From: a virus
DNA: 22,574 nucleotides
IMG/VR virus record: IMGVR_UViG_3300037360_000175
Span: 1-22,574 of that record
Direction: 5' to 3' (one strand)
Within the stretch, counting starts at the first letter, position 1. Each line of letters opens with the position of its first letter. The notes below the pieces were generated by a model. The model saw nothing but the letters and a program-made list of their open reading frames with translations. It searched no databases and had not been told where the DNA came from. The position numbers and the translations under genes were made by a program. Below, piece by piece: positions 1 to 22,497 of the stretch.

Positions 1-1693
1 CGGCTCCCGGTCCTACGAGTCCTGTAAAGCCTTGGAGTCCCGTGCTTCCTTGGGCTCCTGCCCCGCCCGTGCCTCCAGTAGGCCCCGTCAAACCAGTAAG
101 GCCTTGTAGTCCCGTTAGACCTTGCAGACCAGTGCCTCCTTGGGCTCCTACCCCGCCCGTTCCTCCTGTAGGTCCTGTCAAACCAGTATTACCTTGTAAT
201 CCAGTTTTCCCTTGTAATCCTGTTAAGCCTTGAAGCCCTGTTAATCCCTGAAGACCTGTTAGACCTTGCAAACCTGTAAAGCCCTGGACTCCTGTGAGGC
301 CTTGTAATCCTGTTAAGCCTTGAAGCCCTGTTAATCCCTGAAGACCTGTTAGTCCTTGTAATCCTGTAAAGCCCTGGACTCCTGTGAGGCCTTGTAATCC
401 TGTTAAGCCTTGTAATCCTGTAAAGCCCTGGACTCCTGTTAGACCTAGTCCTTGGACTCCAGTTCTTCCTTGGACTCCAGTGAGGCCTTGTAATCCTGTT
501 AAGCCTTGAAGCCCTGTTAATCCCTGGACTCCTGTATTACCTTGAACCCCCGTGAGGCCTTGAAGACCCGTGAGGCCTTGAAGCCCTGTAAGACCTTGTA
601 TGCCTTGTAGTCCTGTGTTTCCTTGTATGCCTTGAACTCCTGTAGGGCCTTGTAAACCTGTAGGGCCCTGTAATCCTGTAGTACCTTGGACTCCGACACC
701 TGTAAACCCTTGAGGCAATATAATAGCACTTATGTTTCCCGTGGCATCGGTCACAACCATTCTCTGGCCAGGTCCAGATAGGTTTTGGAGTTGAACAGAA
801 CTCACCACATTTAAAGACCCAGTAACATCCGCGGTTCCAGAAAATACGACACTTGACCCGGACACGGTCATTGGCGAGTTTACGTAAGTAGAGCCATTGC
901 TTACCGGTATATAGGTATTAGAAACCAAAGCTCCTGGGCCAGTTATACCCTGTAGACCTGTTATACCTTGCACTCCGGTGGATCCTGTAAAGCCTTGCGT
1001 GGACCCTGCACTAATCTGGACCCATACTCCCGTTCCCGTGGTCCCTGCAAATAGGGCACCATCCGTTTCCTGGAAAAGTAAAACAGGCTCGGGAGGACCT
1101 AACGGAGGGTAGTAGGTTTGGTCAAGAAAATTTGCAAGTCCCGTGATACCTTGGACGCCTTGTATTCCTTGGACACCAGTTCCACCAGAAACCGAGCCCG
1201 CGGAAATCTGCACCCAATGGTCGGATCCTGCTACGCCGGCAAATAAAGCTTGGTCTTGCTCGTTGTAAAGTAATTCCGGTGTCACTCCAAGTGACGGGTA
1301 CGGTGTTTCGTCAAGAAAATTTATGGCTTGGGTTAAACCAGTGATGCCTTGCAACCCTGTCTGACCTTGAGCTCCGTCAGCCCCGTCAGCCCCGTCAGCC
1401 CCGTCAGCTCCAGCAGCTCCAGCTGGCCCTTTAGATCCTGCTGGTCCAGCGGGACCCGGAACCCCCAGACCGGTATGGCCTTGAACGCCGGTAGGATTTA
1501 AAGCTACCGAAGTATTCAAAGTGTTAACATTATCGTAAATGTCCGCAAAGAAAGCCTGCCATGGGCGTTTTACGGAGCCTGTGGTATTCCCTCCAGCATC
1601 ACTTTCGACAATATCAGTTCTGTTCGGAGGCGGTCCCAGTTTTGGGACCGTGACCGCGGCGGGATTAGAAGGTTTTTTCTTTAGTGATGCCAA
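1..1693 (-). CDS. Collagen-like phage fibre protein, 3' end beyond window
   Basis: This frame is open for 564 codons from a TTG start and runs off the left edge. An in-frame TAG lies four codons upstream of the TTG and the first in-frame ATG is far downstream, so TTG (1693-1691) is the only sensible start. AGAGGAA sits 2 bases before it and overlaps the tailspike stop codon. The N-terminus is Lys/Pro-rich and is followed by a WQAFFADIYDN segment, possibly a virion anchor. A short collagen stretch with GAD repeats follows, then two copies of a 42-43 residue module ending WVQISAGS (residues about 126-167 and 189-231). After a non-collagen segment (residues about 265-328) comes a long Gly-X-Y tract from residue 329 to the edge, dominated by GLQGLT and GVQGFT units, with Thr frequent in the Y position as in other phage and bacterial collagens. 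It is probably a trimeric rod acting in adsorption, next to the tailspike. The receptor-binding tip is not seen. Confidence 0.85.
   Translation of the reverse strand, partial: MASLKKKPSNPAAVTVPKLGPPPNRTDIVESDAGGNTTGSVKRPWQAFFADIYDNVNTLNTSVALNPTGVQGHTGLGVPGPAGPAGSKGPAGAAGADGADGADGADGAQGQTGLQGITGLTQAINFLDETPYPSLGVTPELLYNEQDQALFAGVAGSDHWVQISAGSVSGGTGVQGIQGVQGITGLANFLDQTYYPPLGPPEPVLLFQETDGALFAGTTGTGVWVQISAGSTQGFTGSTGVQGITGLQGITGPGALVSNTYIPVSNGSTYVNSPMTVSGSSVVFSGTADVTGSLNVVSSVQLQNLSGPGQRMVVTDATGNISAIILPQGFTGVGVQGTTGLQGPTGLQGPTGVQGIQGNTGLQGIQGLTGLQGLTGLQGLTGVQGNTGVQGLTGLQGLTGLQGLTGVQGRTGVQGLGLTGVQGFTGLQGLTGLQGLTGVQGFTGLQGLTGLQGLTGLQGLTGLQGLTGVQGFTGLQGLTGLQGLTGLQGLTGLQGKTGLQGNTGLTGPTGGTGGVGAQGGTGLQGLTGLQGLTGLTGPTGGTGGAGAQGSTGLQGFTGLVGPGA
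211..390 (-). repeat. 90-bp tandem duplication in collagen tract
   Basis: Bases 211-300 and 301-390 match at 87 of 90 positions, with differences at offsets 53, 59 and 62. The unit encodes 30 residues (ten Gly-X-Y triplets), so the duplication keeps frame. Shortened copies of the same unit follow at 391-440 and about 481-530, showing repeated gain and loss. It lies wholly inside the collagen-like gene. Confidence 0.9.
1001..1318 (-). repeat. Duplicated 42-43 residue non-collagen module
   Basis: Two copies, at 1193-1318 and 1001-1129, each begin with FLD and end with WVQISAGS. They share about 25 of 42 residues, including ALFAG near the middle. A short collagen linker separates them. The divergence points to an older duplication than the 90-bp one. 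The fold is not recognised. The WVQIS ending resembles small beta modules often seen in phage fibres, which is inference only. Confidence 0.8.
1371..1406 (-). repeat. Four 9-bp repeats encoding Gly-Ala-Asp
   Basis: Four tandem 9-bp units (GCTCCGTCA once, then GCCCCGTCA three times on the plus strand) encode consecutive GAD triplets in the first short collagen segment. A 9-bp unit changes length without breaking frame or Gly periodicity. Confidence 0.85.
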
Positions 1694-1700
1694 GTTTCCT

Positions 1701-4574
1701 CTATGCTATTAGTAAGTTTATTGACTGAGGGGCTATACTATACACATAATTACTCCCTAAAGGAGTTTCTTCCCACGTAGATGAGACCATTGATTCTGCA
1801 CCGCTGTATGTGCGGACAAAGGGAGTCAAAATCTGCCACTGCGTACTATCCATGGATATCGCACCTGGCATCGGATTTACCCCATCTTGACTATACCCGT
1901 AAATCATAAATGGCAACATACCCCGCCGGCCCCCCCTCGCGGCAGGAACAAAAGGGAAAGAGGTCTGGTACACCGTCCAGCCTGTATACGTTCCAGCACC
2001 CGTCGAACCGGTCAAATTAGCTGTCAAAACTCCTGTTCCAAAATTATAATTGGTTACTGTACCTGTCATAGTTACCGTTGGATCACTGAGGGCTACAGCA
2101 TAAATGGACTGCCCAAGACTAATGGAATTAAGTCCAGCTCCTACTTGAAAACTCGCTGGAGACTGCGGGGAATCAATCGTGTCTGGAGCCGATAAGGGGT
2201 TGCATGAGCTGAGGTATACAGTTGTTGGCGAGGACTGAGTTGTCATATCAATTTGTGGAAAGCTAATCGTCGTCATTTTTAAAAATGTCTGGTATGTCAA
2301 GGTAGATGTCGTATCTACGGTAGTGCCATTTAGCGCCACTTTATAAGACACAGGAGGAGTAATAACAGCCGCTGTTCCAGAGACTGTTATTGCGGGGATA
2401 TTTAACCCGTTCGCATCAAGATGTCCGTATTCTTGCCCTAAATTTCCCCAATAAAACCGGCCCTGGACTGGGTCACGCTCATCCCAAGTATAAGTATCCG
2501 TTCTCGGACTAACATTGGTATTATCATAACCTGCGGAAGTATGTATTCGTGATAGATTATTTATATTGTTAACCGTTACAAACTGCCTGCTCCATAAATT
2601 CACTGCATTTGATGGAGACCCACAGGCTGTCACTAAAGTGCTCAACCCATCCGCACGGTCTAAAGGGTTATGCACAATAAACTGGGCCTTTCCTTGATCC
2701 GAACTGTCAACCGCGGAGTAATCTCCAACAATTTCCTTGAAGGTCTTATAAGCGGTCGAGTCCAGGAACGCTTGCCCGGTCTGATACCCATCCGCTAAAT
2801 GATATGCTTGCCCCGAATACCCCACAACCTGGTTATTTTCAATGTTTCCAGGCAATACGGAGCCTGAATTCTGACTGTAAATGCCCCAGCCCTGGGTCAC
2901 GACTGAAGGACCTTGATAAATCGAGTTGTTCGAGACCAACACATAATTATTGACGGATGAAGAAATATAGATTCCATATATTAAATTCGTCCCCGTCGTC
3001 ACGGAAATATTATTGCCCGTAACAATTGAATTTCCTATCACTGTATTGTTGATTTCAATACCGGTTTCTTGGGGGTCAACGCACTGGTTATTTGTTATTG
3101 AGTAGTTTGAGCCATATACGGAAATGTCCTTCATCGAATCATAAATTATGTTGCTATCAATCATCCAGTTATTGGCATTCTGAATAGAGATTGCAACACC
3201 CGTACAGTTATATAAAGAGCACCCCATCACTTTTCCAGAAGTCATGGCGCCCGTGGCGATTATTCCAAGAAAAGCATTGTATATAACGGAATTACGTACG
3301 ATGTTGCCTGACCCACTCTGGTCAAAGCAAACACAATACCCCGTAGGAGAGGCGTTTCGAATCGTGCAATTTTCTATGATAGCGTTAAAAGTCTCTAAAT
3401 AAATTATGGTCTGGGCGGTAGCTGAACCATCAATTATCAAGTCCCGGAGCACAGGTCCGCGTAGTCCGCCAACCCCATCCGCCATCTGAATAAAAGTCCC
3501 GGACGAGCCAATGAACTGTAAGTTAGCCAGATACTCTTCATTGGCAGGATTGTTTTCATCGTCTGTTTCAAAAGGCTGACTTCCCTTTAAATTTATCCCC
3601 CCGTGAGTAGTAGGAATACTTATAGCATTACAATAATATTTTTTTGACGAATTAAAAACAACCCACATCCCGGTCGAGCAAGAATTTATCGCCAATTGTA
3701 TAGGAGCGGTATCGTCCGTCGTTATAGTATCATTGAGGAAACTTCCATCCCCTTTTGCTCCGAACCATTCGGGCTTAACCTCAATAATACCATAAAGAAC
3801 TGGAGCAGAACCGCCAGATCCTACATAGAAATGCTGGAAATCGTCTGAGGGGGACGCATGAACAGTCGGCTGAATAGCCGTATTCCACTTTAACCCGCCA
3901 TTGGCGCTGAATACAATGTCCGAGGCCAGGGCCGGCTGAGTTATATAAAAAATTCCATTAATGTAAAGATAAAAATTGTTGTTACCAGAAACGAATGCAT
4001 CCGCGGCCTCGACCGCGCCCGTGTCATCGTTTACCCCGTCCCCCACTGCTCCGTACATAAATGGCGAAACATAACCATTCAACTCAAGGACCCATCGTCC
4101 GGTCACGGACGGACTCGGGGCGATATATACTCCTCCATCGTCTGCCTGAGTAGAGGCCGCGTTCCAGTAATAGGTTCCGCCGCCGCCATCCCCGACAGTG
4201 TTATACCCCAGGGTGGTCACGGCTAAAGAAGACCCGGGAGCTAAAGATCTGAGGCCCGCCGGTCCTTCGAGGGTAGCAATCAAGTTATACCCGGCCACGG
4301 CTGAGCCAATGTTGTCAACGGTCCAAAGGACGTTCCCCATTTGGTCTTGCAAGACAAATTTATATAACCCTGGTGAAAGCCATACGTTAGCAGAACCCAT
4401 TCCGTCCAGGATCACGGGATTTGTATTTGCTCCAATACCTGTCGAGTCAACATAAGTGCTTTTTGGGGTTGTAGTTCCAGCGATATAAGTGAATAGCTGT
4501 CCAGCAACGAGAGGTTGACCAGCACTGTTCCAGTAGAAAAACTTCGGACTTGGACTTAATACGGTTGTAGTCAT
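1701..4574 (-). CDS. Tailspike with head-binding domain and right-handed beta-helix
   Basis: This 957-aa protein is a probable trimeric tailspike that binds, and may cleave, host surface polysaccharide. Residues 1-95 look like a P22-type head-binding domain (SAGQPLVAGQLFTYIAGTTTP, then a WLSPGLYKFVLQD segment). Two pectate-lyase-3 style entry motifs follow, GAVGDGVNDDT at 175-185 and EWFGAKGDG at 269-277 with DDTAPIQLAI at 287-296. Residues about 370-590 hold short Asn-rich rungs such as NCTIRNAS and NNSIYQG, typical of a parallel beta-helix. Residues 600-957 are probably the trimerisation and distal domains and are not recognised. No catalytic residues can be assigned. The ATG overlaps the TGA of the upstream gene (ATGA) and has AAGGA about 8 bases before it, suggesting coupled translation. 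The gene ends 7 bp before the collagen-like gene, so both fibres are likely co-made. Confidence 0.88.
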   Translation of the reverse strand: MTTTVLSPSPKFFYWNSAGQPLVAGQLFTYIAGTTTPKSTYVDSTGIGANTNPVILDGMGSANVWLSPGLYKFVLQDQMGNVLWTVDNIGSAVAGYNLIATLEGPAGLRSLAPGSSLAVTTLGYNTVGDGGGGTYYWNAASTQADDGGVYIAPSPSVTGRWVLELNGYVSPFMYGAVGDGVNDDTGAVEAADAFVSGNNNFYLYINGIFYITQPALASDIVFSANGGLKWNTAIQPTVHASPSDDFQHFYVGSGGSAPVLYGIIEVKPEWFGAKGDGSFLNDTITTDDTAPIQLAINSCSTGMWVVFNSSKKYYCNAISIPTTHGGINLKGSQPFETDDENNPANEEYLANLQFIGSSGTFIQMADGVGGLRGPVLRDLIIDGSATAQTIIYLETFNAIIENCTIRNASPTGYCVCFDQSGSGNIVRNSVIYNAFLGIIATGAMTSGKVMGCSLYNCTGVAISIQNANNWMIDSNIIYDSMKDISVYGSNYSITNNQCVDPQETGIEINNTVIGNSIVTGNNISVTTGTNLIYGIYISSSVNNYVLVSNNSIYQGPSVVTQGWGIYSQNSGSVLPGNIENNQVVGYSGQAYHLADGYQTGQAFLDSTAYKTFKEIVGDYSAVDSSDQGKAQFIVHNPLDRADGLSTLVTACGSPSNAVNLWSRQFVTVNNINNLSRIHTSAGYDNTNVSPRTDTYTWDERDPVQGRFYWGNLGQEYGHLDANGLNIPAITVSGTAAVITPPVSYKVALNGTTVDTTSTLTYQTFLKMTTISFPQIDMTTQSSPTTVYLSSCNPLSAPDTIDSPQSPASFQVGAGLNSISLGQSIYAVALSDPTVTMTGTVTNYNFGTGVLTANLTGSTGAGTYTGWTVYQTSFPFVPAARGGRRGMLPFMIYGYSQDGVNPMPGAISMDSTQWQILTPFVRTYSGAESMVSSTWEETPLGSNYVYSIAPQSINLLIA

Positions 4575-5973: not shown

Positions 5974-8900
5974 TTATCTCCAGAAAGAATCTAATGGAGG
6001 ACGAGTATCATTTTGTCTTTTATTATTATTATTTACCATTTTGCCAAGAGTTTGCACGCCCTTGCCTACAGCGACTGCTGTGCCCCCAGTAATTGAAGCC
6101 ATGGCCGGAGCGGATCTCAAGATGCTTTTTACACCTGGATTAAAAGAGCCATTATTCGCGATCGCGGACTTTATTTGATTTTCAGAGAACGGTATATAAG
6201 TATGAGACTTAACCCCCATGGTATTATGCACTTCGTGGTCTTCAAAACCGAATCCATCATAATTCTTTTTAATGTAGCGTTCCAGGCCTGGGGACTTTTC
6301 CATCAGGCCCATAAGTGGCCGCAAGTGCTCGGGTAGGAAAGAGCCCACAAAGTCGGGACCTCCGGCAAACCCATGAGATTGCAGAACCTTATTTATAGTA
6401 CCCCAATCATCTTTACTTTTAGTCTTCATATCGTACACGATATCCCTGATGTCTTTTTCCTGCTGTTTCAGCGTTTTTATTGCCAAGCCACGGAACCTCA
6501 AATCTTCTTCTTTTTGGCTCGTAGGTATTTTGTCCAATCGCTCTTGGTCATAAGTAGGGTGCTGTTTTTTATAAAAATAATCAATTGACTTTTGATAGTC
6601 TTTGGCTCTTTGAGCAAGTCCTTCTTTATCTGTAAGGGCGTTTGTTAGATTATTTATATCTCCCTTAAACATGTCGGACAATGATGTTTTTTCTGTGACT
6701 GGATTCCTGATATTTAAGTAAGCAGGTGTCACATTTGATTGGAAACTTGGCTTATGGTATTGCAAATCTCTCAAGGGGGCCCCATAAACAGCATATCCGT
6801 CCGAAACTTCTGGGCTGTCTGTCCAAAAAGAGTGCCCGAGAATTCGGCCGCGCTCGGCCTGTGGGAACTCTCCGCTTTTTGGAACATCTGGCATTGTTCT
6901 GCCGTTTGTCACTATCTTAGGCTGACCGTTTTCATGAACAACTTTACTTGCGGTTTCAGGAGATTTTTCCCAGTCCCCAAAAAAGTTCTTGAATTGGGGG
7001 GTCTTTTGCTGGGCCATTTGAGCTTCAGATCCACCGATTGCTCCAGAGGGCTTACCACCAAATATTCTCTTCCAAAGTGGCCGGTTTATTTCTTTTAATT
7101 TAGCTTCGTATTTCGACTTTAGCTCCTGTAGATTTCTGGCCTCTATTGTGAGTCCTTCCCCATTAGATTTACCTTTTTCCGTTATTGTAATTGAGTGATA
7201 TGGCTCAGTTTTTCCCTTTATACCGGGAGCCCCCCCTGTATATTCGGCTTTAATACCTGTCTTATCTATGAACTCTCTTACAATATTTCCTCCTAATTTT
7301 TCATTTGGATAGATAAGTTCAGGATTTACTGATTTAAGAACTTGAGTTGCTCCGCCGGGGGTGTATGGCGGTTTGGGCCATGCTCCGACGGGGATGTATG
7401 GCGGTTTGGGCCATGCTCCAGCATTCGGGTTTGGTCCTGTTCCGCCACCCATATTTGGATTCGGCTGAGGACCTTGCGGATTCCAATTAACCGGCGATTG
7501 ACCAACGGGGGGCAACATAGGCTTTTCCGCAGGCGTCAACACATCTCCCACTTTGCTCACCCCACGACCAAGATTCATCAATGTCGATGCTGCCCGTCCC
7601 TGATTTAAAGCTGCCTGACCTAGCTCTCGGACAGCGATCGTGCCAGCAATCGCCGGAATAGACGCAGGATGTGCCAGAGCAGTTCCCATTCCTCCCAGGA
7701 CCTCTGTGCCTCTTATAAGCGCATTAAAGGGGGAGGGTTTCTTGGATAACGCATTTTCCAGGGCATCCTGGGCAAATTTGATATCCCGGGCCTCGAGATT
7801 AAGTTTCCCGGCCTCAGGGACATAGCCATTAATCTTTTTTATAACCCCACTCTGGAAAGAATCATACATGGCCTCTTTAACCGGATCAAGCGATGGGTCA
7901 TAATGCTTGTATTTGGCCCCAATTGATCGCTTTACATCCACCAAATCCGTAGGGGATAGCTTATCTGGATCAATGTTCTTGGCTTTTAATTCATCTATGA
8001 TATCAGAATGAATGTTATCGATGACTTTTTTGGCCGCAGTCCGCTCTCCAGCACGAATCTCACCAGGTATGCCGGCTTTTACATCCTCAACGATTGATTT
8101 CAGCGTTGTAGTTTCACCAGGATTTTTCTCGGCATATTGCTTAATCAAGTCATCTGCTTGAGTCCATTTATCTTTAAAGGCATCCTTTGCATTTTGGAAG
8201 GATGCCTTATACCCTAACGGACTGTCCAGTTTGTAATCTTTTATGGTATTTCCGATATTGGCCTCGGCCTGAGTATATTCAGGAGCAATTTTACCTGCAA
8301 GGGATTTGGTAATTCCTAGTTGTCCGGTATAGACCGTTTTTCCAAGGTTTGTTGCCGCCTTCCCTGTAGCAGATAGCATTCCAGGTACTTTACCCACAAA
8401 GGGCAATAAATTCAAGGCAGATTGCACATCTGGATTTCCAAGAACATTTTCTGCTGTTGACGCCACTGCCGTTGCCCCAGGGATTTTATTCGCGGCCACA
8501 TTATATAAGGAACCTAAAGTCGTAGTGCTAGGGATGCCTATCGAGCCTGGACCTATAGCTCCAATAGTAGAAGCAGCATCTTGGGCCATGGCCTGAAGAG
8601 GAACCATTCCAAGATTATAAAGGTTTCCCATAGCCCCTCCAGCCAACCGTAGGGGCACTTGACCGATCGCTTTGCCTATGCTTATCAAGGAAGGATGTTC
8701 AGGCAGGGTTGCACCTTCCTGCACATTTTGCAAAGACTGCTGAAACTGTTGAGCATAAGTTTGCGGAATACGTGAAACAGCAGGACTCTCGTCCGGAGTT
8801 CCTTTCGGAACATTTGCTGTCACGTCCGCTGGTGCCGAAGTCATAGGGGCTTGAGGCCCTTGCGGACTCGCGGGAGTTTGAACTAATGCACTGTTATATT

Positions 8901-9009
8901 GCGGATATTTTTGCAATATCCGGGTGGTCAAATCAAGATCATCCATCCCGGAATACGCAGGATATTTCTCTTTAATCTGAGACGCAAATTCATTGATTGT
9001 TAAAGGCAT
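5974..9009 (-). CDS. Large ejection-type protein with ART-like polyvalent domain
   Basis: This 1011-aa protein sits where P22 gp16 does. The N-terminus (FASQIKEKYPAYSGMDDLDL, residues 8-27, with a second KYPQY) matches a motif common in phage internal virion proteins. Residues about 105-225 and 430-480 are Ala/Gly-rich and amphipathic or weakly hydrophobic, compatible with membrane passage. A Pro/Asn/Gly linker (about 495-555) contains the duplicated GAWPKPPY unit. Residues about 673-958 resemble ADP-ribosyltransferase-like domains of polyvalent proteins: FKNFFGDWEKSPETASKVV, then SFWTDSPEVSDGYA, YLNIRNP, YDGFGFEDHE and ENQIKSAIANNGSFNP. The usual YHGT/S motif is replaced by TNGR (701-704), so activity is doubtful. 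A Gly/Ala segment and basic tail end the protein. TAAAGGTTAGCT before the ATG supplies the ribosome binding site. Likely role: injected with DNA, with the C-terminal domain acting on a host target or kept for structure. Confidence 0.8.
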   Translation of the reverse strand: MPLTINEFASQIKEKYPAYSGMDDLDLTTRILQKYPQYNSALVQTPASPQGPQAPMTSAPADVTANVPKGTPDESPAVSRIPQTYAQQFQQSLQNVQEGATLPEHPSLISIGKAIGQVPLRLAGGAMGNLYNLGMVPLQAMAQDAASTIGAIGPGSIGIPSTTTLGSLYNVAANKIPGATAVASTAENVLGNPDVQSALNLLPFVGKVPGMLSATGKAATNLGKTVYTGQLGITKSLAGKIAPEYTQAEANIGNTIKDYKLDSPLGYKASFQNAKDAFKDKWTQADDLIKQYAEKNPGETTTLKSIVEDVKAGIPGEIRAGERTAAKKVIDNIHSDIIDELKAKNIDPDKLSPTDLVDVKRSIGAKYKHYDPSLDPVKEAMYDSFQSGVIKKINGYVPEAGKLNLEARDIKFAQDALENALSKKPSPFNALIRGTEVLGGMGTALAHPASIPAIAGTIAVRELGQAALNQGRAASTLMNLGRGVSKVGDVLTPAEKPMLPPVGQSPVNWNPQGPQPNPNMGGGTGPNPNAGAWPKPPYIPVGAWPKPPYTPGGATQVLKSVNPELIYPNEKLGGNIVREFIDKTGIKAEYTGGAPGIKGKTEPYHSITITEKGKSNGEGLTIEARNLQELKSKYEAKLKEINRPLWKRIFGGKPSGAIGGSEAQMAQQKTPQFKNFFGDWEKSPETASKVVHENGQPKIVTNGRTMPDVPKSGEFPQAERGRILGHSFWTDSPEVSDGYAVYGAPLRDLQYHKPSFQSNVTPAYLNIRNPVTEKTSLSDMFKGDINNLTNALTDKEGLAQRAKDYQKSIDYFYKKQHPTYDQERLDKIPTSQKEEDLRFRGLAIKTLKQQEKDIRDIVYDMKTKSKDDWGTINKVLQSHGFAGGPDFVGSFLPEHLRPLMGLMEKSPGLERYIKKNYDGFGFEDHEVHNTMGVKSHTYIPFSENQIKSAIANNGSFNPGVKSILRSAPAMASITGGTAVAVGKGVQTLGKMVNNNNKRQNDTRPPLDSFWR
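7362..7419 (-). repeat. 33-bp period repeat encoding GAWPKPPY
   Basis: A 25-bp identical string (7362-7386 and 7395-7419) recurs at a 33-bp interval in the Pro-rich linker of the 1011-aa protein, giving GAWPKPPYIPV followed by GAWPKPPYTPG. The near identity suggests a recent in-frame duplication in a flexible linker. Confidence 0.85.
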
Positions 9010-9018
9010 AGCTAACCT

Positions 9019-10470
9019 TTATTTCAAGTTAATTCCAAGTGGATTATTAGGATCTACTGCACCAGGCGCTTTACCAGGCCCTGCAACTGGCGCAGTACCA
9101 CCAGGTCGTTTCTGAGCCTTACCAGGCCCTGTGTAAGAACTTTTAACGGCTTCCGCCATTTTATTCCACTGTTCTGGATTGCGCGATATAAATCCTTTTG
9201 CAGCGGCAGCATACACTCCAAGATTATCGTCCACAACATTATTGTCTATGCTTTTAAAACCCTCAAACATTTTTACCAATTTATCTATAACTGCTGTATC
9301 TTTGTACTGCATCGGCTGACCAGTAACACTTTGAGCCAGTTCCAACCCTTTTTCGTACAAACTGCCGTACATACCTTTTTTAAGCTGTTGCTCGTCTGGA
9401 GACCCTTGCTTCATAACCGACAGAAAGTCTGTTACAGCAGCATCTTTCTGGGTAACGTCAATATCAGGATCTTGCAATAATAACAATGCTCGATCCGATT
9501 TCATATTATTTGTGGCCGCCACGCCCAAAAGAGTTCTTGAAGTAGCGGTAAGTGAATTAATGTGCTGTGCAAGTGTTAAAGCAGTCTTTTCATCGTCTTT
9601 TTCCTGCTGTTTTGGCGCTTTTGCCGCTTTATCCTGTTCGGCCTTTAACCTAAGAGCCTCCTTGGCTCTATCCGCTCGTTCTTTTTCCAACTCGGCTGGC
9701 TTTTGAATCTCTTGCAACTTATATTCATTCTGGTCCACTCCGGACTGCTTTATTCGATCTAAAGTCGCTTGCTGAAAAGAATTTGCCGCAGATACAACTC
9801 CCGTCTGCAAGGCTTGTAATTTTTGCGGATCTACAGGTCCTTGTTCATATCCAGTCGGTTGTCCATTCGCATCCATTATAGGTTGTCCATTCGCATCCAT
9901 TATAGGTTTCCGACCCAATATTGTATTCCAAGTGGCTATATCGCCCGGCGAATGAAAATTACCTTGATGCAATTTCGAAAAAGTATCTATGACCGCGGCT
10001 GCCGTCTCAGGCGTAGCCTTGACCAATAAATTAGCAAAAGTGCTGTTATCATCCAATTGCTGTTGCGTTCGCTCTTTGAAATTCAACTGATCTTGCTTAA
10101 CCTTCGCAGTATTCATCATCGCAGTGGCCCGGTTCTCAGCCGCCTGACCCATATTTTCCCGGTAAGCCCGCATAGCCGCCGCGTTCTCAATAGTCCCCAT
10201 GGTCTCAGGATTAACACCTGCGAGGGACGTACGGCCCGCAGGAGTTAAATTACCCTGCTCATCCATGGCGCCCTGCTGGCCCAAGATCCCCTTGGTCATC
10301 AACGCCTGACGGCGTTGGTCCATCATATTGGCCAAATTTAAGGTCGTGCCCATCTGTTGTTCATATGTTGGCGCAGCCGTGGCCTTGGCCTGACCAGCCA
10401 TCTGGCCAATCGTTATTCCACCATTACTAGCCAAGTCCGACATCTGAGGAAAACCAATTACTTCTGCCAT
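9019..10470 (-). CDS. Probable ejection protein (gp20 position), coiled-coil
   Basis: This is a 483-aa soluble-looking protein with no recognised enzymatic motif. It is Ala/Gln/Met-rich and mostly helical by eye, with long charged helices at about residues 100-145 and 245-300 (LEKERADRAKEALRLKAEQD), probably coiled coil. A perfect duplicated PIMDANGQ lies near residues 189-204. The C-terminal 35 residues are Gly/Pro-rich and ordered structure is unlikely there. Its location between the 467-aa and 1011-aa genes matches the gp7-gp20-gp16 ejection set of P22, though no residue-level similarity to gp20 can be claimed. AAAGGAT precedes the ATG, 10 bp after the upstream stop. It would be packed in the capsid and expelled during infection. 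Confidence 0.72.
   Translation of the reverse strand: MAEVIGFPQMSDLASNGGITIGQMAGQAKATAAPTYEQQMGTTLNLANMMDQRRQALMTKGILGQQGAMDEQGNLTPAGRTSLAGVNPETMGTIENAAAMRAYRENMGQAAENRATAMMNTAKVKQDQLNFKERTQQQLDDNSTFANLLVKATPETAAAVIDTFSKLHQGNFHSPGDIATWNTILGRKPIMDANGQPIMDANGQPTGYEQGPVDPQKLQALQTGVVSAANSFQQATLDRIKQSGVDQNEYKLQEIQKPAELEKERADRAKEALRLKAEQDKAAKAPKQQEKDDEKTALTLAQHINSLTATSRTLLGVAATNNMKSDRALLLLQDPDIDVTQKDAAVTDFLSVMKQGSPDEQQLKKGMYGSLYEKGLELAQSVTGQPMQYKDTAVIDKLVKMFEGFKSIDNNVVDDNLGVYAAAAKGFISRNPEQWNKMAEAVKSSYTGPGKAQKRPGGTAPVAGPGKAPGAVDPNNPLGINLK
9857..9904 (-). repeat. Perfect 24-bp tandem duplication
   Basis: Two identical 24-bp units (9857-9880 and 9881-9904), with four more matching bases after them, encode PIMDANGQ twice in the 483-aa protein. 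No mismatch is present, so the event is recent or the copies are being homogenised. Confidence 0.92.
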
Positions 10471-10480
10471 AATTTATCCT

Positions 10481-11884
10481 TTAATAGTATCCTGGATATT
10501 GCGTTTGACGTTGCGGAGTTTGTTGATACAGTCCTGGATTCAATTGAGTATTAAATGGTATTGGCTGTTGAGTAGGGCCACCTTGATACCCAAAGTTATT
10601 AGCCCATGCTGACCCATAAGGATTCAAGGTCTGATAATTGCTGTAATTAGCCCCCGCCGCCGGATTTAAATTTTCTAAAGTTGCGGGGGGCTGTATAAGA
10701 TTTCCATTGATATCATACCCCGTAGGTTGATTACTCGATATAAAAGATGGATTATACGAAGTATTTATTGGACCTTGTTCAATCCCCGAAGGAGAAGAAG
10801 AGTAATACGGAGGATAATTATTTGTCGGGCCATTTAATTGGCCTTCTGTATTCTGAGGAAGATAGGGTCCATATAATTGATTTACAGTAGTGGGCTCTGA
10901 TGGTCCTTGGTTCCCCATCCCCGACTGATAGTTGTAGTTGGAATTTATATTAGGAACTGCAGTTTTATTAGGATTAGCCAAATCATATATCTGACCAAGA
11001 CTTGTTAATCCACTCTGAACATTAGCACCTATCTGGTTAATGCCCTGAGCCTGGGCCTGACCCGTGCCTATATAGGAATTCGCAAGTCCCGCCCCTAGAC
11101 TTGTATTGATGTTGCTAATTGCATTGGCAGCAGGCTGAGCATAACTTGCTATCTGCTCCTGCATTCCATAGGCCTGTTTTTGCTGGTTGAGTTGGTCCTC
11201 AAAAGTCTGTTGCGCATTCTCCATGCCAATCTTCTGCTGGCCGGCATATTGGTTATACGCCTGGTTCTGAACTTCCTGACCCATGCCCTGTTGCTTCATG
11301 TAATTGCTGAACATGTTCTGATAGTCCTGGGCCGCGAGCCCAGTTCCATACTGTTGCATCGCCTTTAGTGTTGCACCAGAAAGTGCCCCGCCCCCGGCCG
11401 CGGCCGAGTTCTGAATACTATTCAGGCCTTGCTGAAGTTGAAATTGATATCCGGGAGACTGTTGCATATTAAAGTTCTGCAACTGATACTGAGACGGCAA
11501 CCCGCCATTGGCGCCTTGATTGAAGCCCGTACCCAAATTCGAGCCGGGTATGTTCAAGCCATTTTGTGATCCTTGTGCACTATAGGCATAAGGATTAGTG
11601 TTATATTTTCCCGAGGCTACGTTGCTCGCCAGCGTGTTCATGCCCTGGGAGCCTATCCCGTAAATCTGCTGTTGCGGAGCAAGAGCCTGCGTGGCCTGGG
11701 TCTGTAGAGCATTTCGGGCATTGCTCTGGGCTTCCTGCATATCTTGCGAGGCCGCATTACCTGTTAGACCACCAACAATGGCCCCACCCACGGCCCCGAT
11801 CGCAGTCCCCCATCCTGGGAGGATAGATGTTCCTAAGGCAGCTCCACTCGCCCCCCCGCTTAACGCTCCACTTCCTGATGCCAT
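10481..11884 (-). CDS. Glycine-zipper ejection protein (gp7 position)
   Basis: This 467-aa protein starts with a Gly/Ala-rich, weakly hydrophobic stretch (residues about 5-42; SILPGWGTAIGAVGGAIVGG) of glycine-zipper type. Such segments are common in phage pilot or ejection proteins that insert into membranes on delivery. A Gln-rich helical region (about 45-75, and 150-260 with repeated QNQAYNQYAGQQK-like composition) follows. The C-terminal 170 residues are rich in Asn, Tyr, Pro, Gln and Gly and look disordered. There is no signal peptide with a cleavage site, fitting a capsid-packaged protein. It is first of the ejection trio, 14 bp after the gp10-like gene, with AAAGGAA before the ATG. Assignment to the gp7 role rests on position and composition. 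Confidence 0.75.
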   Translation of the reverse strand: MASGSGALSGGASGAALGTSILPGWGTAIGAVGGAIVGGLTGNAASQDMQEAQSNARNALQTQATQALAPQQQIYGIGSQGMNTLASNVASGKYNTNPYAYSAQGSQNGLNIPGSNLGTGFNQGANGGLPSQYQLQNFNMQQSPGYQFQLQQGLNSIQNSAAAGGGALSGATLKAMQQYGTGLAAQDYQNMFSNYMKQQGMGQEVQNQAYNQYAGQQKIGMENAQQTFEDQLNQQKQAYGMQEQIASYAQPAANAISNINTSLGAGLANSYIGTGQAQAQGINQIGANVQSGLTSLGQIYDLANPNKTAVPNINSNYNYQSGMGNQGPSEPTTVNQLYGPYLPQNTEGQLNGPTNNYPPYYSSSPSGIEQGPINTSYNPSFISSNQPTGYDINGNLIQPPATLENLNPAAGANYSNYQTLNPYGSAWANNFGYQGGPTQQPIPFNTQLNPGLYQQTPQRQTQYPGYY

Positions 11885-11898
11885 AATATATTCCTTTG

Positions 11899-13533
11899 TT
11901 ATTTTTCAGCCGTGATATCGGCTACCGCCGATATAAGTACCACTTTATTAGGGTCTGAAACAGTTATTCGAAAGACCCGGTCCCGGGAATTACCCAACCG
12001 AGTGAATTTTAAACGTTCCCTATAAGCTCCTGCTTTGCCTAATTTTTTCCATATCTCATTCTTAAAAGTAAACCCACCATCATCACTGTAAGATAGCATG
12101 GCCTGCGGATCATAGGACTGGTCAGTGGGGGACACAGGATTGGGATTGCCGACACCTCGCTCGAAGTCCACTTCCACCATATTAAAGAAAAGCCTTTTCC
12201 TGTCCTGATGGACGTGCGACCCCGTCCGGACTCTTCTTACTATTTCTCCATTGTCCAAGTAATAACTATCATCGAGAATATATACGTTACCGTTTCTATA
12301 GTCCCCACAGTAAACTTTATCAAGAAAGAAAACATAAGAATTCGCATAGTGCCTGTCCATGACCCCGGTGTTCTGGTTCCATGCACCTCGCTCGTGCCAC
12401 ATCCCTATTTGGTTCGATACGGCTAAGTTTGCATCGTATACCAATGTTCTATTTCCGTTGATAAATGATAAAATATAAAACTGATGCCCTGATTGCGTAT
12501 AGGTGTAACCTATAGCGTCTTTTATGTCCGGCAAACCCTCGGTAATGAAATCTATAGAAGTTGTGGAACATTTTATCGGTGAATAATTTTGAGTCAACCA
12601 TACTTGCCCGTGGCCCTGGGTCGAGCTCCCCAGCCAAAAAAGATATTGACCATTTGATACTACACTGTTGGGAGCAATGGTCCCATTCGAGGTCACCCCT
12701 CCGTGTATCAAGGAGAAGGCCCCGGCCGTGGGTATTGCTGAACTGCTGTAACTGATAGAGCTGCTCCCTGAGTCTTTCCATACTTCGATGGACTGAGTCC
12801 CTATGATCCATAAATCACCGTTCAGCGAAGCTAAAGCGGAGATGTTGTCGGGGAGCGTTTCAGCGGAAGAATAGTTCAGAGGGTCCCAATGAAAACCATC
12901 ATACAGGTTGCTCCAGTAAAATCTCTGGCTATTGAGCTCGTTAACTATAAACTTTCCCCCAAGAAAGCAGACATGTGTGCATTGGGGAAAGTACCCATAC
13001 TGGGGCTCCGTGTATCCGGTCATTATCGTGGGAAAATATCCACCCGTGATCTTGGCCAGTGTATTAGTTGTCAGATTGAACATGTATCCGTTAAAGCCAT
13101 CGACAAACATCATCCCAAGGCCCTGGTACTCCCCCGTGGGGTTGCCATTGGCATCTAAAATGGGCTGGTCGACGCCTATCCCATTGTCCGCAAAATTGAC
13201 CCGGGTATTTCCGCTGTCTTCGATTGTTCCCCACTCCGTTACTTTCCCGTACTGGCTCACCTCGTAGAGTTTGTTCCCCGCCACGTAGAACATGCGGTTG
13301 TTGCTCGTGACAAAGGAACCCCGAACCGCCTTATTATTAGGCAAAGTGCAAAAAAGACGAAGACCGGGCGTGGAGTACAGGACCAATTCCGCCTTCTGCC
13401 GATCAGGGAACTGGTGGCTAGGCCAGTCCACAACTGTCCTGGCCAGTTCCGGATAGAAGTTTATGCACTCTTGGGCATTCACCGCACGAGAGCGACTTTC
13501 GTACATAGGTCCACAAAATCCAAGATCAGGCAT
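11899..13533 (-). CDS. P22 gp10-like packaged-DNA stabilisation / tail hub protein
   Basis: Read from the ATG at 13533 this protein has 544 aa. An in-frame GTG two codons earlier is possible, but the ATG overlaps the upstream TAA as TAATG and has AGGG 7 bases before it, whereas the GTG has no room for a ribosome binding site. The sequence resembles phage stabilisation proteins of the P22 gp10 type: an N-terminal ARTVVDWPSH... STPGLRLF region followed by repeated beta-strand blades (RGSFVTSNNRMFYVAGNKLYEV, YLFWLGSS, FYILSFINGNRTLVYD) of a beta-propeller-like hub. In P22, gp10 binds below gp4, closes the filled head and holds the tailspikes. The order gp4-like then gp10-like is conserved here. 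No tail-needle (gp26) homologue follows; that slot goes straight to ejection proteins. Confidence 0.85.
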   Translation of the reverse strand: MPDLGFCGPMYESRSRAVNAQECINFYPELARTVVDWPSHQFPDRQKAELVLYSTPGLRLFCTLPNNKAVRGSFVTSNNRMFYVAGNKLYEVSQYGKVTEWGTIEDSGNTRVNFADNGIGVDQPILDANGNPTGEYQGLGMMFVDGFNGYMFNLTTNTLAKITGGYFPTIMTGYTEPQYGYFPQCTHVCFLGGKFIVNELNSQRFYWSNLYDGFHWDPLNYSSAETLPDNISALASLNGDLWIIGTQSIEVWKDSGSSSISYSSSAIPTAGAFSLIHGGVTSNGTIAPNSVVSNGQYLFWLGSSTQGHGQVWLTQNYSPIKCSTTSIDFITEGLPDIKDAIGYTYTQSGHQFYILSFINGNRTLVYDANLAVSNQIGMWHERGAWNQNTGVMDRHYANSYVFFLDKVYCGDYRNGNVYILDDSYYLDNGEIVRRVRTGSHVHQDRKRLFFNMVEVDFERGVGNPNPVSPTDQSYDPQAMLSYSDDGGFTFKNEIWKKLGKAGAYRERLKFTRLGNSRDRVFRITVSDPNKVVLISAVADITAEK

Positions 13534-14615
13534 TACCACACCCTATCGCTAAAAATGTTATACCAGGGATTTCCGCGTGTAAGTAAGGCTGAATCGGTGG
13601 CCATGATATCCGGCTGATAATTCGAATCCCTTAAAGCACTTAGGGCCTTTGTGGCCATGGCCTCAAGGTTTGGAACATCTTTACCGAATTCAGGGGCCAT
13701 CTTTACTGCCAGAGAAAGACTCAGTGCATCTTTATATCCAGGAGGCAAACAGACCACGTCCTGGAGGGACGTGAATTTCGTGAATTGATGCCACTGAGAT
13801 ATATTGATTTTATACGCTTTTGTCGGATTCGGCCATATATTCAGAGTTCCATTAGGCCATGAGTGCTCATAGTAAAAGAAGCGAGGATAGGAACTCGTTA
13901 CAGCTTTCTGAAAAATCTGATTCCACCGGTCAGATGTGACCGATTGTAAATCCCAATCGTTATTGTAGCCCGGTGTAGTATCCCTAATAAAGCAAGAAGT
14001 TATCTTAATCGGAGTCATGGTCACAAAATCACAGACCAAGGGATCAGGGCCTATAATGTATGTTTGCTTATTGGCTACTGTAGGGAATAATTGGTTTTCT
14101 ATATAATAACAAAAAGTTTTGTTAACCGTCCACTCTTCAAGCATCCAGTTCAATACCTGTAGAAAGTCTGTCGACTGCTGGGCTTCAGGAGTCTCAGTCG
14201 CGCCGATTACTTGAATCAAACGCATTGCCCTTTTTATGATGTCAATAACATGGGTTTTCGGCAGAATTGTTCCATCATTACATGTCTCGGGAATAACAAC
14301 TTCGAAATTTGCGGTTCCTATGAGCCCAGTCGTGGCCTCGATCGCGGTAACTATGTAGTTCCCCTGGACATCGGCCTGGGCCGTGAGCAAACCGGTTGTG
14401 CTTATAGTACCCCCGCCATTTATGGACCAAGTATAACTATAAATAGTTTGATTGGCCATGGGATTTCCCTGCTGGTCGAGCATAGTGGCAATGAATTGCT
14501 GAGTCGTATTATTAGCAACCTCAGCATTCTGAGGCGTGACTAAAACAGACGTGGCTACAGGAAGAACATCCTTGTAGTAACTTTGGCCATATGTAGTGTT
14601 TCTGCCGTAAGGCAT
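13533..14615 (-). CDS. P22 gp4-like head-completion protein with N-terminal Ig-like domain
   Basis: This 360-aa protein is much longer than P22 gp4 (166 aa). Residues about 120-360 carry the gp4-like part: KTHVIDIIKRAMRLIQVIGA followed by a LQVLNWMLEEW helix, then beta-rich segments, PRFFYYEHSWPNGTLNIWPNP and a C-terminal helical region (LPPGYKDALSLSLAVKMAP). P22 gp4 attaches under the portal to close the packaged head. Residues about 20-108 look like a bacterial Ig-like (Big_2) domain: VLVTPQNAEV, QQFIATMLDQQGNP, YTWSINGGGTISTTGLLTA and a G-Y-VTA strand. This extra domain would be displayed at the neck. GGAGGA lies about 10 bases before the ATG. The 82-bp AT-rich gap upstream (14616-14697) separates it from the glycosyltransferase gene; no convincing promoter is visible there. 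Confidence 0.8.
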   Translation of the reverse strand: MPYGRNTTYGQSYYKDVLPVATSVLVTPQNAEVANNTTQQFIATMLDQQGNPMANQTIYSYTWSINGGGTISTTGLLTAQADVQGNYIVTAIEATTGLIGTANFEVVIPETCNDGTILPKTHVIDIIKRAMRLIQVIGATETPEAQQSTDFLQVLNWMLEEWTVNKTFCYYIENQLFPTVANKQTYIIGPDPLVCDFVTMTPIKITSCFIRDTTPGYNNDWDLQSVTSDRWNQIFQKAVTSSYPRFFYYEHSWPNGTLNIWPNPTKAYKINISQWHQFTKFTSLQDVVCLPPGYKDALSLSLAVKMAPEFGKDVPNLEAMATKALSALRDSNYQPDIMATDSALLTRGNPWYNIFSDRVW

Positions 14616-14697
14616 AATAACTAGTCCTCCATTAAATTATCTTTTAATATCTTCACATATTAATGTATTATAAGGTAAGCTATGATTAAAGCTCACC

Positions 14698-19792: not shown

Positions 19793-21982
19793 TTAAAATC
19801 CTTGTTGTGTTCCTTCTTGCACCAAACCACCCTGCTGGACCGCGGACACCGGCGTAGAGGGCACCTGGACCGGCGTCGAAGCTGACTGCTTGGGAAGCGG
19901 AGCCTGTCCTATTTGATGCAGCTTTACCGCCGAATCCACATTCGACGAAATGATATTATGCGACTGCCGCACATGCTCTTGCGCCAAAGCATACTTCGCC
20001 TTCTCAATTTCAGTCTGGGCCTTGACCTCGGTATCGTGTACCTTGGCCTGTATTTCCATCTGCTTGTCCTTAAGCGCTTTCTGTAAATTACCAATAAGTC
20101 CCTGCATCTGAGAATTCTGCTGTTGTAAACCCTGTGCCTGCTGCATGGTCTGCTGATGCGCCTGCATAAGCTTTTGCATGTCCCCGACCACGGCCCGCAT
20201 CTGCTGCTCCTGCATCTCCTGCGTAGACCCCGCCTCGTCCTGACCTATAACCCCATTCATGTTGGGCTGGGCCTGAATAAACCGCTTCAACCGATCGGCA
20301 ACCTCGCCACTTAAAGGATTATCGAGCATCCGCATGATAAGATCAGGTGCCACAGTACCAACAAGTGGTATTTGAGGTAAAACCTGGGCCAAGGTCGTAG
20401 CCGCTTCAACACGTTTAGTTTCATAGCTGGGTCCTATGTCAATAACTACATCATAATTACCCACTGTCATGTCGTAAACACGCCCATCAGGGCCCGGGTG
20501 CTGGGTATTTATGGAAACTATCTTGTCCGTCATGTCCTCGCCCAAACACCTTACCATTCTCTCCCTGTTGTAGAAAATAGGGATTAAATCTATCAAAATC
20601 TTGCCCAAAAGGTGATACCCCCGCGCCAGGTTGTCAATAAAGTGAAAATTGGAGATATCACCTTGGCGTTGTCGAGCAATGATGGCTTTTCCCGAAATTT
20701 CATTTGACTGTGCACCCAAAGAACTATCGTAAATGCCAGATATTTCCTTCATCTGTTGTGCGGATAAAGTGATTCCCTGAAGGAAAGCGCCCTCGACCTC
20801 AACAGAAGGGAGTCTTATGGGCGGAGGAACAGGGGCACCATCGTGAGACAACGGACTATAACGTAAAAAGGGCAAATTCTTTCTGTTAAGCTCTTTCCAT
20901 TCAGGGAATCGCTCAATTTGACCCGCCGCGGCAAGGAATGGGGACTTGGGCGAATTAGCCACCTTCTCAGTATAGGCGGTGAAGAAGTAATTGTAGGACC
21001 TTTGAGGGTCTTTTAAGAAACGGGTAATCGAAATCCAAGTCTTTTTGCCCGTATCGTCCGCGGAAGGTATCTCCGGGCCCATAACCGGTATAATCGGGAT
21101 GTATTTACCAGGCCAGTCCTTCTGTTCAAGAATTTCATTCTCGGACATCAAGTACCACTTGATGGTTTTCTTTACCGAGTCACGTTCATCAACGATTTCG
21201 AGGCCCTTGGGTACTTTCTTCTTGTCATCAATAACCGTTCCGTCGCTCAATTCGTAAATCGTCTTCTTTTCTTGTTCAACATTCCAGTATTCAGCGACAA
21301 AGACATAGTCTTTGCCCTCCCAGTTCGCATCTCCTACCGAACTGGAAGCAAAATTTGCCATTTTTGCCTTGGGATGCTTGAGCTTAAACTCATCTTTTGA
21401 CATCCTGGACCGCACAAAAGCATATTCAGCATCGCTGAAATCAGCATATTTGCACAAATGGACCGGAAAATACACGGAAAAAGGATTCTGTATCCGCTCC
21501 AGGTACAATTCCTGGTTAAAACTGTTATCATCGAGATATTCGGAAAGAACACGGAAATAGCCAATCCCACATACGACTTGGTAAAAAGTTGCATCATCTA
21601 TCGCGGCTTTGGAATTTCCGTTGTTCAAAATGTGTCTTATCATCCCGTCCACGACCTGGGCCGTGTCGGGGTCCGTGAGACTGTCAACAGGACGAATTTT
21701 AATCGTTGGGCGGTTCTGCCTCATATCATTTATGATCCGATAGCAGAATTCCGGGATTTTGTTGTTCGTGAGCACGGGCCGGCGGTCTTCCGTCCGATCG
21801 CGCATGATGGCTTCCGGCCATTGACGACCACCGAAAAAGTACAGGTCCTCCAAGGATTCTTGGCGGGCGGCACTCGTGTTTTCCTGGATCTGGTCAAAAC
21901 GAGCCAAAGCTATTTTCAAGACCTTTTCATCAGGGCTTAGCCCGGTCGTGTTAACTAAAGAGTTTTCTTCGTTTATTGCCAT
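19793..21982 (-). CDS. P22-like portal protein
   Basis: This 729-aa protein is close in length to P22 portal (725 aa) and alike in plan. The N-terminus has the ALARFDQIQENTSAARQESL helix followed by a LYFFGGRQW segment. Residues 85-115 carry NDMRQNRPTIKIRPVD and DPDTAQVVDGMIRHIL, a family signature. The core has QNPFSVYFPV, the wing strands, and YDVVIDIGPSYETKRVEA (a DxGPS motif as in P22). From about residue 587 to 675 a Gln-rich coiled coil (MRAVVGDMQKLMQAHQQTMQ) would form the long portal barrel. Twelve copies form the DNA channel at one capsid vertex. The leader is only 17 bp before the endonuclease gene and carries just a weak GAG about 11 bases before the ATG, unlike every other structural gene here. 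Confidence 0.93.
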   Translation of the reverse strand: MAINEENSLVNTTGLSPDEKVLKIALARFDQIQENTSAARQESLEDLYFFGGRQWPEAIMRDRTEDRRPVLTNNKIPEFCYRIINDMRQNRPTIKIRPVDSLTDPDTAQVVDGMIRHILNNGNSKAAIDDATFYQVVCGIGYFRVLSEYLDDNSFNQELYLERIQNPFSVYFPVHLCKYADFSDAEYAFVRSRMSKDEFKLKHPKAKMANFASSSVGDANWEGKDYVFVAEYWNVEQEKKTIYELSDGTVIDDKKKVPKGLEIVDERDSVKKTIKWYLMSENEILEQKDWPGKYIPIIPVMGPEIPSADDTGKKTWISITRFLKDPQRSYNYFFTAYTEKVANSPKSPFLAAAGQIERFPEWKELNRKNLPFLRYSPLSHDGAPVPPPIRLPSVEVEGAFLQGITLSAQQMKEISGIYDSSLGAQSNEISGKAIIARQRQGDISNFHFIDNLARGYHLLGKILIDLIPIFYNRERMVRCLGEDMTDKIVSINTQHPGPDGRVYDMTVGNYDVVIDIGPSYETKRVEAATTLAQVLPQIPLVGTVAPDLIMRMLDNPLSGEVADRLKRFIQAQPNMNGVIGQDEAGSTQEMQEQQMRAVVGDMQKLMQAHQQTMQQAQGLQQQNSQMQGLIGNLQKALKDKQMEIQAKVHDTEVKAQTEIEKAKYALAQEHVRQSHNIISSNVDSAVKLHQIGQAPLPKQSASTPVQVPSTPVSAVQQGGLVQEGTQQGF

Positions 21983-21999: not shown

Positions 22000-22497
22000 A
22001 TGAAACTGATTCCGCTTACTCAAGGCTTCTCTGCAATTGTTGACGACGACAAATTCGAGTTTCTTTCCCAATGGAAGTGGTATGCCAGAAAAGGCACACA
22101 TACCTGGTATGCAGGAAGATGTGTTAGAGTTTCCAAAACTAAAAAAGTTATTTACATGCATCGTGTTATCCTAAACAACCCTCTTAACGAAATAGACCAC
22201 ATTGACAGTAATGGCCTTAATAATCAACTACATAATCTAAGAGTCACCACAAAAGCCCAAAATCAGTTTAATAGAGGTCTCTCTATGACAAATAAATCGG
22301 GATTTAGGGGCGTTTATTTCAATAAACGTGCTAAAAAATGGTTTGCACGAATTGAAGTTAATAAAAAATGTCATTGGTTAGGTAGTTTCCCCACCGCTGA
22401 AGAAGCCGGCAAAGCTTACGATGACGCGGCTCGACGACTTCACGGCGATTTTTATAAAAATCCATCATTAAAAACTTCTCATTTGACCGGGCTCTAA
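22000..22497 (+). CDS. HNH homing endonuclease with AP2 DNA-binding domain
   Basis: This 165-aa protein is the only convincing plus-strand gene. The start ([20 protein letters not shown], then LSQWKWYAR) is standard for phage HNH-AP2 free-standing homing endonucleases. The HNH fold covers about residues 50-90: MHR with H54, EIDHID with D66-H67, and [14 protein letters not shown]. The AP2 domain covers 100-151: [19 protein letters not shown] and [16 protein letters not shown]. It would nick or cut a homing site in an allele lacking the gene. No ribosome binding site precedes the ATG. The start is 17 bp from the portal start (divergent), and the last 30 bp overlap the 3' end of the minus-strand gene at the right edge. 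Family members often stop soon after HGDF, so residues 152-165 look like an acquired tail. Confidence 0.9.

What the first reader, a model, noticed from the sequence alone, without database searches (positions are those of the whole stretch)
6136..6993. ADP-ribosyltransferase-like polyvalent domain on a virion ejection protein, with a changed catalytic motif
Residues about 673-958 of the 1011-aa protein carry the order of motifs seen in ART-like domains of large phage polyvalent proteins: FGDWEKSPETASKVV, a F-W-T-D-SPEVSDGYA segment, YLNIRNP, YDGFGF, and QIKSA with NGSFNP. Such domains are usually expected in early-injected effector proteins. Here the domain is attached to a protein with gp16-like position and N-terminus, so it may be delivered into the host with the DNA. 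The usual YHGT/S is TNGR, which argues for lost or altered chemistry. A roughly 150-residue helical insertion (about 775-905) also separates YLNIRNP from YDGF.
Basis: partly seen in the sequence, partly recalled or inferred. Interest (0 to 1): 0.72.

Follow-up and report, generated by a model that had tools for sequence, protein, structure and literature searches.

The report
Altered ADP-ribosyltransferase cassette on ejection protein
A P22-like virus of bacteria carries, on a protein that it probably shoots into its host with its DNA, a swappable domain from a known enzyme family (ADP-ribosyltransferases) whose key catalytic histidine has become asparagine, yet selection still preserves it; so it may be a binding module or altered enzyme and not a normal one.

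Summary
Residues 670-965 of the 1011-aa ORF (window 6115-7002, minus strand) match Pfam ART-PolyVal (43.0 bits, cut-off 31.2) and my own 86-member profile (102 bits). A family-guided AlphaFold model (pLDDT 78, pTM 0.75) finds annotated viral ART-PolyVal structures. The strand-1 histidine is Asn702 (TNGR for YHGT). Asn is rare but recurrent there (2 of 39 members sampled without bias; otherwise His). Asp918 is kept. The insertion before it is real: 147 residues against a family median of 32. The ORF is the third of an ejection-protein triplet in a P22-like late module. It has no detectable similarity to P22 gp16, so "gp16-like" is positional. Its N-terminal 40 residues (duplicated KYPxY) open the same-slot protein in 14 other contigs. 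Against a sister phage, the ART domain is an island of about 97% DNA identity whose edges fall at the domain's edges: a swapped cassette, under purifying selection (dN/dS 0.13). Best reading: an exchangeable effector cassette delivered with the DNA, probably no longer a standard transferase. Delivery and activity are inferred, not shown. Virion-packaged polyvalent ARTs and a polyvalent protein in this slot (phage VvAW1) are known, so this is a new variant of a known kind.

The parts
5974..9009 (-). 1011-aa third ejection-slot protein carrying the ART-PolyVal cassette
   Evidence: ORF; position after gp7-like and gp20-like ORFs as in P22
8884..9003 (-). N-terminal 40-aa module (residues 3-42) with duplicated K-Y-P-x-Y, shared by same-slot proteins
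7294..8799 (-). middle region (about residues 71-572): linker, Gly/Ala-rich segments, helical part; replaced in the sister phage L014
6115..7002 (-). ART-PolyVal domain, residues 670-965; about 97% DNA-identity island against L014
6898..6909 (-). TNGR (residues 701-704) at the family's YHGT strand-1 motif; Asn702 replaces the active-site His
6817..6828 (-). FWTD (728-731), strand-2 aromatic position (family Tyr/Phe/Trp)
6259..6699 (-). insertion (about residues 771-917), mostly helical; family median 32 residues here
6253..6261 (-). YDG (917-919) with the retained strand-5 Asp918
6136..6177 (-). QIKSAIANNGSFNP, C-terminal family motif
5977..6111 (-). C-terminal tail (967-1011), Ala/Gly-rich segment and basic end; diverged from L014 at synonymous sites
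9019..10470 (-). second ejection-slot ORF (gp20 position)
   Evidence: position; N-terminal 75 residues shared with L014
10481..11884 (-). first ejection-slot ORF (gp7 position), weak match to phrog_598 'DNA ejection'
   Evidence: the L016 ortholog matches phrog_598 at 1.7e-12
11899..13539 (-). gp10-like head closure Hc3 (phrog_578)
19793..21982 (-). P22-like portal protein (PF16510, E 5.8e-160)
1701..4574 (-). tailspike-like beta-helix protein

Best explanation
The 1011-aa protein is the third ejection protein of a P22-like phage. Its N-terminal module and the middle region would serve packaging and passage through the tail and envelope. The C-terminal ART-PolyVal domain is an exchangeable cassette meant to act in the host cytoplasm early in infection. 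Because the histidine that holds NAD+ in this family is asparagine, while the fold, the strand-5 aspartate and low dN/dS are kept, the domain is most likely a maintained but non-canonical ART: either a pseudo-enzyme that binds a host target or an ADP-ribose/NAD-type ligand, or an enzyme with altered or weak chemistry. Shown: family, fold (predicted), residue change, slot, cassette boundaries, purifying selection. Inferred: packaging, ejection, cytoplasmic action, loss of standard transferase activity.
For: Family and fold. Residues; H-Y-D active site of the family from Iyer et al. 2017 (PMC5512222). Slot: portal, Hc3 and gp7-like matches in P22 order. The N-terminal module occurs once per phage, at the start of the ORF that follows the preceding (second-slot) ORF at 0-44 bp or a few bases of overlap, in the contigs read. 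Cassette: about 97% DNA identity from residue about 668 to 971 against about 55% and about 70-78% outside. Selection: 25 synonymous against 13 nonsynonymous changes, dN/dS 0.126, N702/R704/D918 unchanged. Same slot, other cargo: L034 has two ART-like stretches with YHG intact, the second scoring below the Pfam cut-off; L016 has another unnamed domain; VvAW1, a P22-like isolate, has a 3640-aa DarB-like polyvalent protein there. P22 E-proteins are ejected, and larger enzymatic E-proteins exist in other phages (PMC8402733).
Against: No virion proteomics or ejection data. No detectable similarity of the chassis to P22 gp16. The PDB fold search gave no ART, probably because the helical insertion dominates. 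The model was guided by an alignment of the same family; a single-sequence model failed. dN/dS rests on one pair of genomes. Asn at this position recurs in three other members (L007, L107, L115), so it could still be an active variant.
Confidence: 0.55

Rival explanations
1. A fully active ART with Asn in place of His: it ADP-ribosylates host RNA polymerase or another target on entry, as T4 Alt does.
For: Purifying selection, conserved Asp918 and C-terminal motif; Asn recurs in L007, L107 and L115, always with the Asp kept.
Against: His is otherwise near-invariant (84 of 86); from general knowledge, ART relatives that lack this His (e.g. PARP9, PARP13) are inactive or strongly impaired in NAD+ use.
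Confidence: 0.25
2. The domain is a structural or packaging element of the virion, or is removed during assembly, and does not act in the host.
For: It sits inside a virion-module protein; no delivery has been measured; the C-terminal tail continues after the domain.
Against: The domain swaps independently of the chassis and same-slot proteins carry unrelated cargo, as expected of effectors and not of a structural part.
Confidence: 0.15
3. The domain is a decaying remnant of a lost enzyme.
For: Changed catalytic motif.
Against: About 13 amino-acid-changing substitutions against 25 synonymous in 303 codons, no frameshift, last 60 residues of the domain nearly identical.
Confidence: 0.05

Closest known systems
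ART-PolyVal (PF18760), ADP-ribosyltransferase domains of polyvalent proteins (Iyer et al. 2017, PMC5512222)
   Same: Profile match over the cut-off, motif order, predicted fold, strand-5 Asp
   Different: Strand-1 His is Asn; 147-residue helical insertion; on a short-tail ejection-slot protein and not in a very large polyvalent protein
T4 Alt
   Same: ART domain expected to be packaged and injected (model stated in PMC5512222 and PMC9503650)
   Different: Alt belongs to the R-S-E clade, is a demonstrated active enzyme and is not a conduit-type ejection protein
P22 gp16 (third ejection protein)
   Same: Genomic position after gp7/gp20-type ORFs; short N-terminus, linker, Gly/Ala-rich and helical middle
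   Different: No detectable sequence similarity; P22 gp16 (609 aa) has no such C-terminal domain
Vibrio phage VvAW1 DarB-like protein (YP_007518343)
   Same: Polyvalent protein in the third ejection slot of a P22-like podovirus
   Different: 3640 aa, methylase-helicase-LPD38, no ART found
MuF fused to ART or other C-terminal effectors
   Same: Virion protein with swappable C-terminal enzymatic cargo (PMC9503650)
   Different: MuF is a head/portal-associated protein; no MuF domain was found here

Membership tests
ART-PolyVal (PF18760) | Profile score above the curated cut-off | tested here: met
   34.8 bits whole protein, 43.0 bits domain; cut-off 31.2
ART-PolyVal (PF18760) | ART-type fold | tested here: met
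   Predicted only: pTM 0.75, pLDDT 78; 29 BFVD matches at E<=1e-3, several annotated ART-PolyVal, e.g. A0A8S5UGT4 with TMt 0.70. No PDB match
ART-PolyVal (PF18760) | Strand-1 catalytic His | tested here: not met
   Asn702; 84 of 86 members have His, 2 Asn. Therefore filed as a non-canonical member by descent, not as an active ART
ART-PolyVal (PF18760) | Strand-2 Tyr | tested here: not met
   Phe728/Trp729; but 28 Phe and 7 Trp among 86 members, so weakly defining
ART-PolyVal (PF18760) | Strand-5 Asp | tested here: met
   Asp918
ART-PolyVal (PF18760) | NAD+-dependent transferase activity | not testable with these tools
   needs biochemistry
Podovirus third ejection protein (P22 gp16 type) | Third ORF of the ejection triplet in a P22-like late module | tested here: met
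Podovirus third ejection protein (P22 gp16 type) | Sequence homology to known gp16 proteins | tested here: not met
   BLASTP E 0.20, hhalign probability 0.3%, no hit with a nine-member slot profile beyond shuffled decoys
Podovirus third ejection protein (P22 gp16 type) | Present in virions and ejected into the host | not testable with these tools
   needs proteomics and ejection assay
Polyvalent protein (multi-domain, 2-15 domains) | Several named enzymatic or LPD domains in one protein | tested here: not met
   Only one named domain in 1011 aa

The most novel reading that the evidence does not exclude
The third ejection protein of many short-tailed phages is a general effector-delivery chassis: a 40-residue N-terminal KYPxY tag plus a fast-evolving envelope-crossing part, onto which phages exchange C-terminal effector cassettes with domain-precise boundaries. 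The window's cassette would be a pseudo-ART that binds, without modifying, a host or defence component.
Probability: 0.3. Interest if true: 0.72.

Novelty: new variant of a known kind. Interest (0 to 1): 0.5.

Why it matters
Injected polyvalent effectors are mostly predicted from giant proteins that are hard to study. Here a single, sharply bounded ART cassette sits on a 1011-aa ejection protein, with a natural His-to-Asn change under selection and same-slot relatives that bear intact ART-like domains, other cargo or none. That makes two questions testable: whether short-tailed phages use their DNA-conduit proteins to deliver effectors, and whether some injected ARTs work without transferase chemistry. 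The KYPxY module gives a handle for finding such proteins across phages.

Tried and rejected
Single-sequence AlphaFold model: pLDDT 35, useless. PDB sequence and fold searches: no ART hit. Phage collection tblastn with the whole protein: only partial ART hits, no ortholog. Portal and ART-cassette queries in viral contigs returned one near relative, L014; the Hc3-type query returned L014 plus more distant P22-like contigs, L015-L021. Genome contigs: only two distant ART proteins. Class- and phylum-wide genome searches gave few ART-PolyVal members. Homology to P22 gp16 and gp7 by pairwise comparison: none. Decay hypothesis: rejected by dN/dS.

Full report
What the window is. It is a 22,574-base fragment of a virus record. 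The minus strand carries a P22-like late module: portal (PF16510, E 5.8e-160), scaffold, coat, small ORFs, an Ad3-like adaptor with an Ig-like N-terminus, head closure Hc3 (phrog_578, E 5.5e-100), three ejection-slot ORFs (10481-11884, 9019-10470, 5974-9009), a 466-aa ORF and a beta-helix tailspike. This is the order of P22 genes 1-8-5-4-10-7-20-16-9. The first ejection-slot ORF matches phrog_598 'DNA ejection' weakly (3.1e-4), but its ortholog in relative L016 matches well (1.7e-12).

Checking the observation. The quoted coordinates are residues 673-958 of the 1011-aa ORF and all quoted motifs are present. Pfam finds only ART-PolyVal, above its cut-off. I collected 79 further loci that encode ART-PolyVal relatives and built an 86-member profile. 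It aligns to residues 670-965 in one stretch with 102 bits. A model from a 56-sequence alignment has pLDDT 78 and pTM 0.75. It retrieves 29 viral predicted structures at E<=1e-3, several of them annotated ART-PolyVal. The PDB search found nothing. The structural evidence therefore rests on predictions, and the alignment was of the same family.

Active site. Iyer et al. (PMC5512222) give this family a His (strand 1), Tyr (strand 2), Asp (strand 5) site. In my set the His column is 84 His and 2 Asn; in the 39 members found by a pattern blind to that residue it is 37 and 2. The window and its sister have Asn702, and L007 is a further Asn case. The strand-2 column is Tyr 50, Phe 28, Trp 7, so the window's Phe/Trp is ordinary. 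Asp918 is kept. The predicted first strand contains IVTNGRT. The helical insertion (147 residues against a median of 32, maximum 105) is a real peculiarity, but shorter insertions occur at the same place (L005, L082, L086).

Slot and chassis. A sister contig, IMGVR_UViG_3300028653_000055 (L014), has the same gene order with 97-100% identical portal, scaffold, coat and Hc3 proteins. Its slot protein (1148 aa) shares the first 70 residues (61%) and residues 573-1011 (85%), but the middle is replaced. A more distant relative (L016, 54-59% in portal and Hc3) has a 1580-aa slot protein with the same N-terminus and Ala/Gly-rich C-terminal end, but different cargo. The N-terminal module, two K-Y-P-x-Y repeats in 40 residues, was found in 14 viral contigs (including L014 and L016) and in Maribacter phage Panino. 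It occurs once per phage, and in the loci read it opens the ORF directly after the preceding (second-slot) ORF, with gaps of 0 to 44 bp or a few bases of overlap. Cargo differs: two ART-like stretches with YHG intact in L034, the second matching the family profile below the Pfam cut-off, a histidine-phosphatase domain in L033, NlpC/P60 in L029, a bare 569-aa version in L038. Nine slot proteins from other P22-like phages show either a bare helical protein or lysozyme/SLT domains. VvAW1 has a 3640-aa DarB-like protein there. I found no sequence similarity between the window's chassis and P22 gp16 or those nine.

Cassette. Aligned with L014 at DNA level, identity is about 40-60% up to residue 660, about 97% on average from residue about 668 to 971, about 70-78% in the tail 971-1005, then about 99% in the next gene. 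The island coincides with the ART domain (670-965) to within a few residues. That is best explained by exchange of the domain as a unit. Within it, 25 synonymous and 13 nonsynonymous changes give dN/dS 0.126; N702, G703, R704 and D918 are unchanged. So the altered domain is selected for and not decaying.

Mechanism. P22 E-proteins leave the virion with the DNA and form a trans-periplasmic conduit; in other phages ejected proteins include T4 Alt and P1 DarA/DarB (PMC8402733). In T7 the C-terminal part of gp16 is thought to reach the cytoplasm (PMC8954989). By analogy the ART cassette would be presented in the cytoplasm at DNA entry. With the NAD-holding His replaced, standard transfer chemistry is doubtful; a binding role or altered chemistry is more likely. 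Packaging, ejection and the biochemical role are inferences.

Known or new. That phage ARTs are packaged and injected is established as a prediction for polyvalent and MuF proteins and shown for T4 Alt (PMC5512222, PMC9503650). My literature searches were limited to the held library and found no description of an ART cassette on a P22-type third ejection protein. I rate this as a new variant of a known kind. Hosts are unknown, and all relatives are from metagenome-derived viral contigs or distant isolates.

Noticed in passing
window 8884-9003; L025-L039: A 40-aa N-terminal module with duplicated K-Y-P-x-Y starts the third ejection-slot ORF in the window, in 14 other contigs and in phage Panino; no Pfam or PHROG name was found for it.
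   Followed up: partly
L136:22982, L137:20599, L138:23371, L147:13638 (N-termini): Other P22-like slot proteins also begin with short, loosely duplicated motifs (FVFEDxxP, LLxxxP, NPFAQF, ITxxDIFG), as if a repeated N-terminal tag were a general feature.
   Followed up: no
L039:8986-9252 and 9168-14657 (Maribacter phage Panino): The KYPxY module ORF is out of frame with the annotated 1829-aa protein that holds an ART-like domain: a frameshift, sequencing error or programmed shift.
   Followed up: no
window 13533-14615: A bacterial Ig-like (Big_1-type, below cut-off) segment precedes the Ad3-like adaptor region in one ORF.
   Followed up: no
L014:9288-10019: The sister phage has an extra ORF containing a GIY-YIG-like motif between the adaptor and Hc3 genes that the window lacks; looks like a homing endonuclease.
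   Followed up: no
window 22000-22497 (+): 165-aa plus-strand ORF resembling an HNH/AP2 homing endonuclease, upstream of the portal gene.
   Followed up: no
window 2-1693 (-): Collagen-like protein with long runs of G-L-Q-G-L-T repeats, at the edge of the fragment.
   Followed up: no
L034:7744-10593: Same-slot protein with two ART-like stretches with YHG motifs (the second below the Pfam cut-off, the first seen by eye); a natural comparison for the altered domain.
   Followed up: partly
L041, L042 (Crassvirales cr85_1, cr271_1): ART-PolyVal domains sit near the C-terminal ends of large proteins, one annotated as an RNA-polymerase subunit.
   Followed up: no
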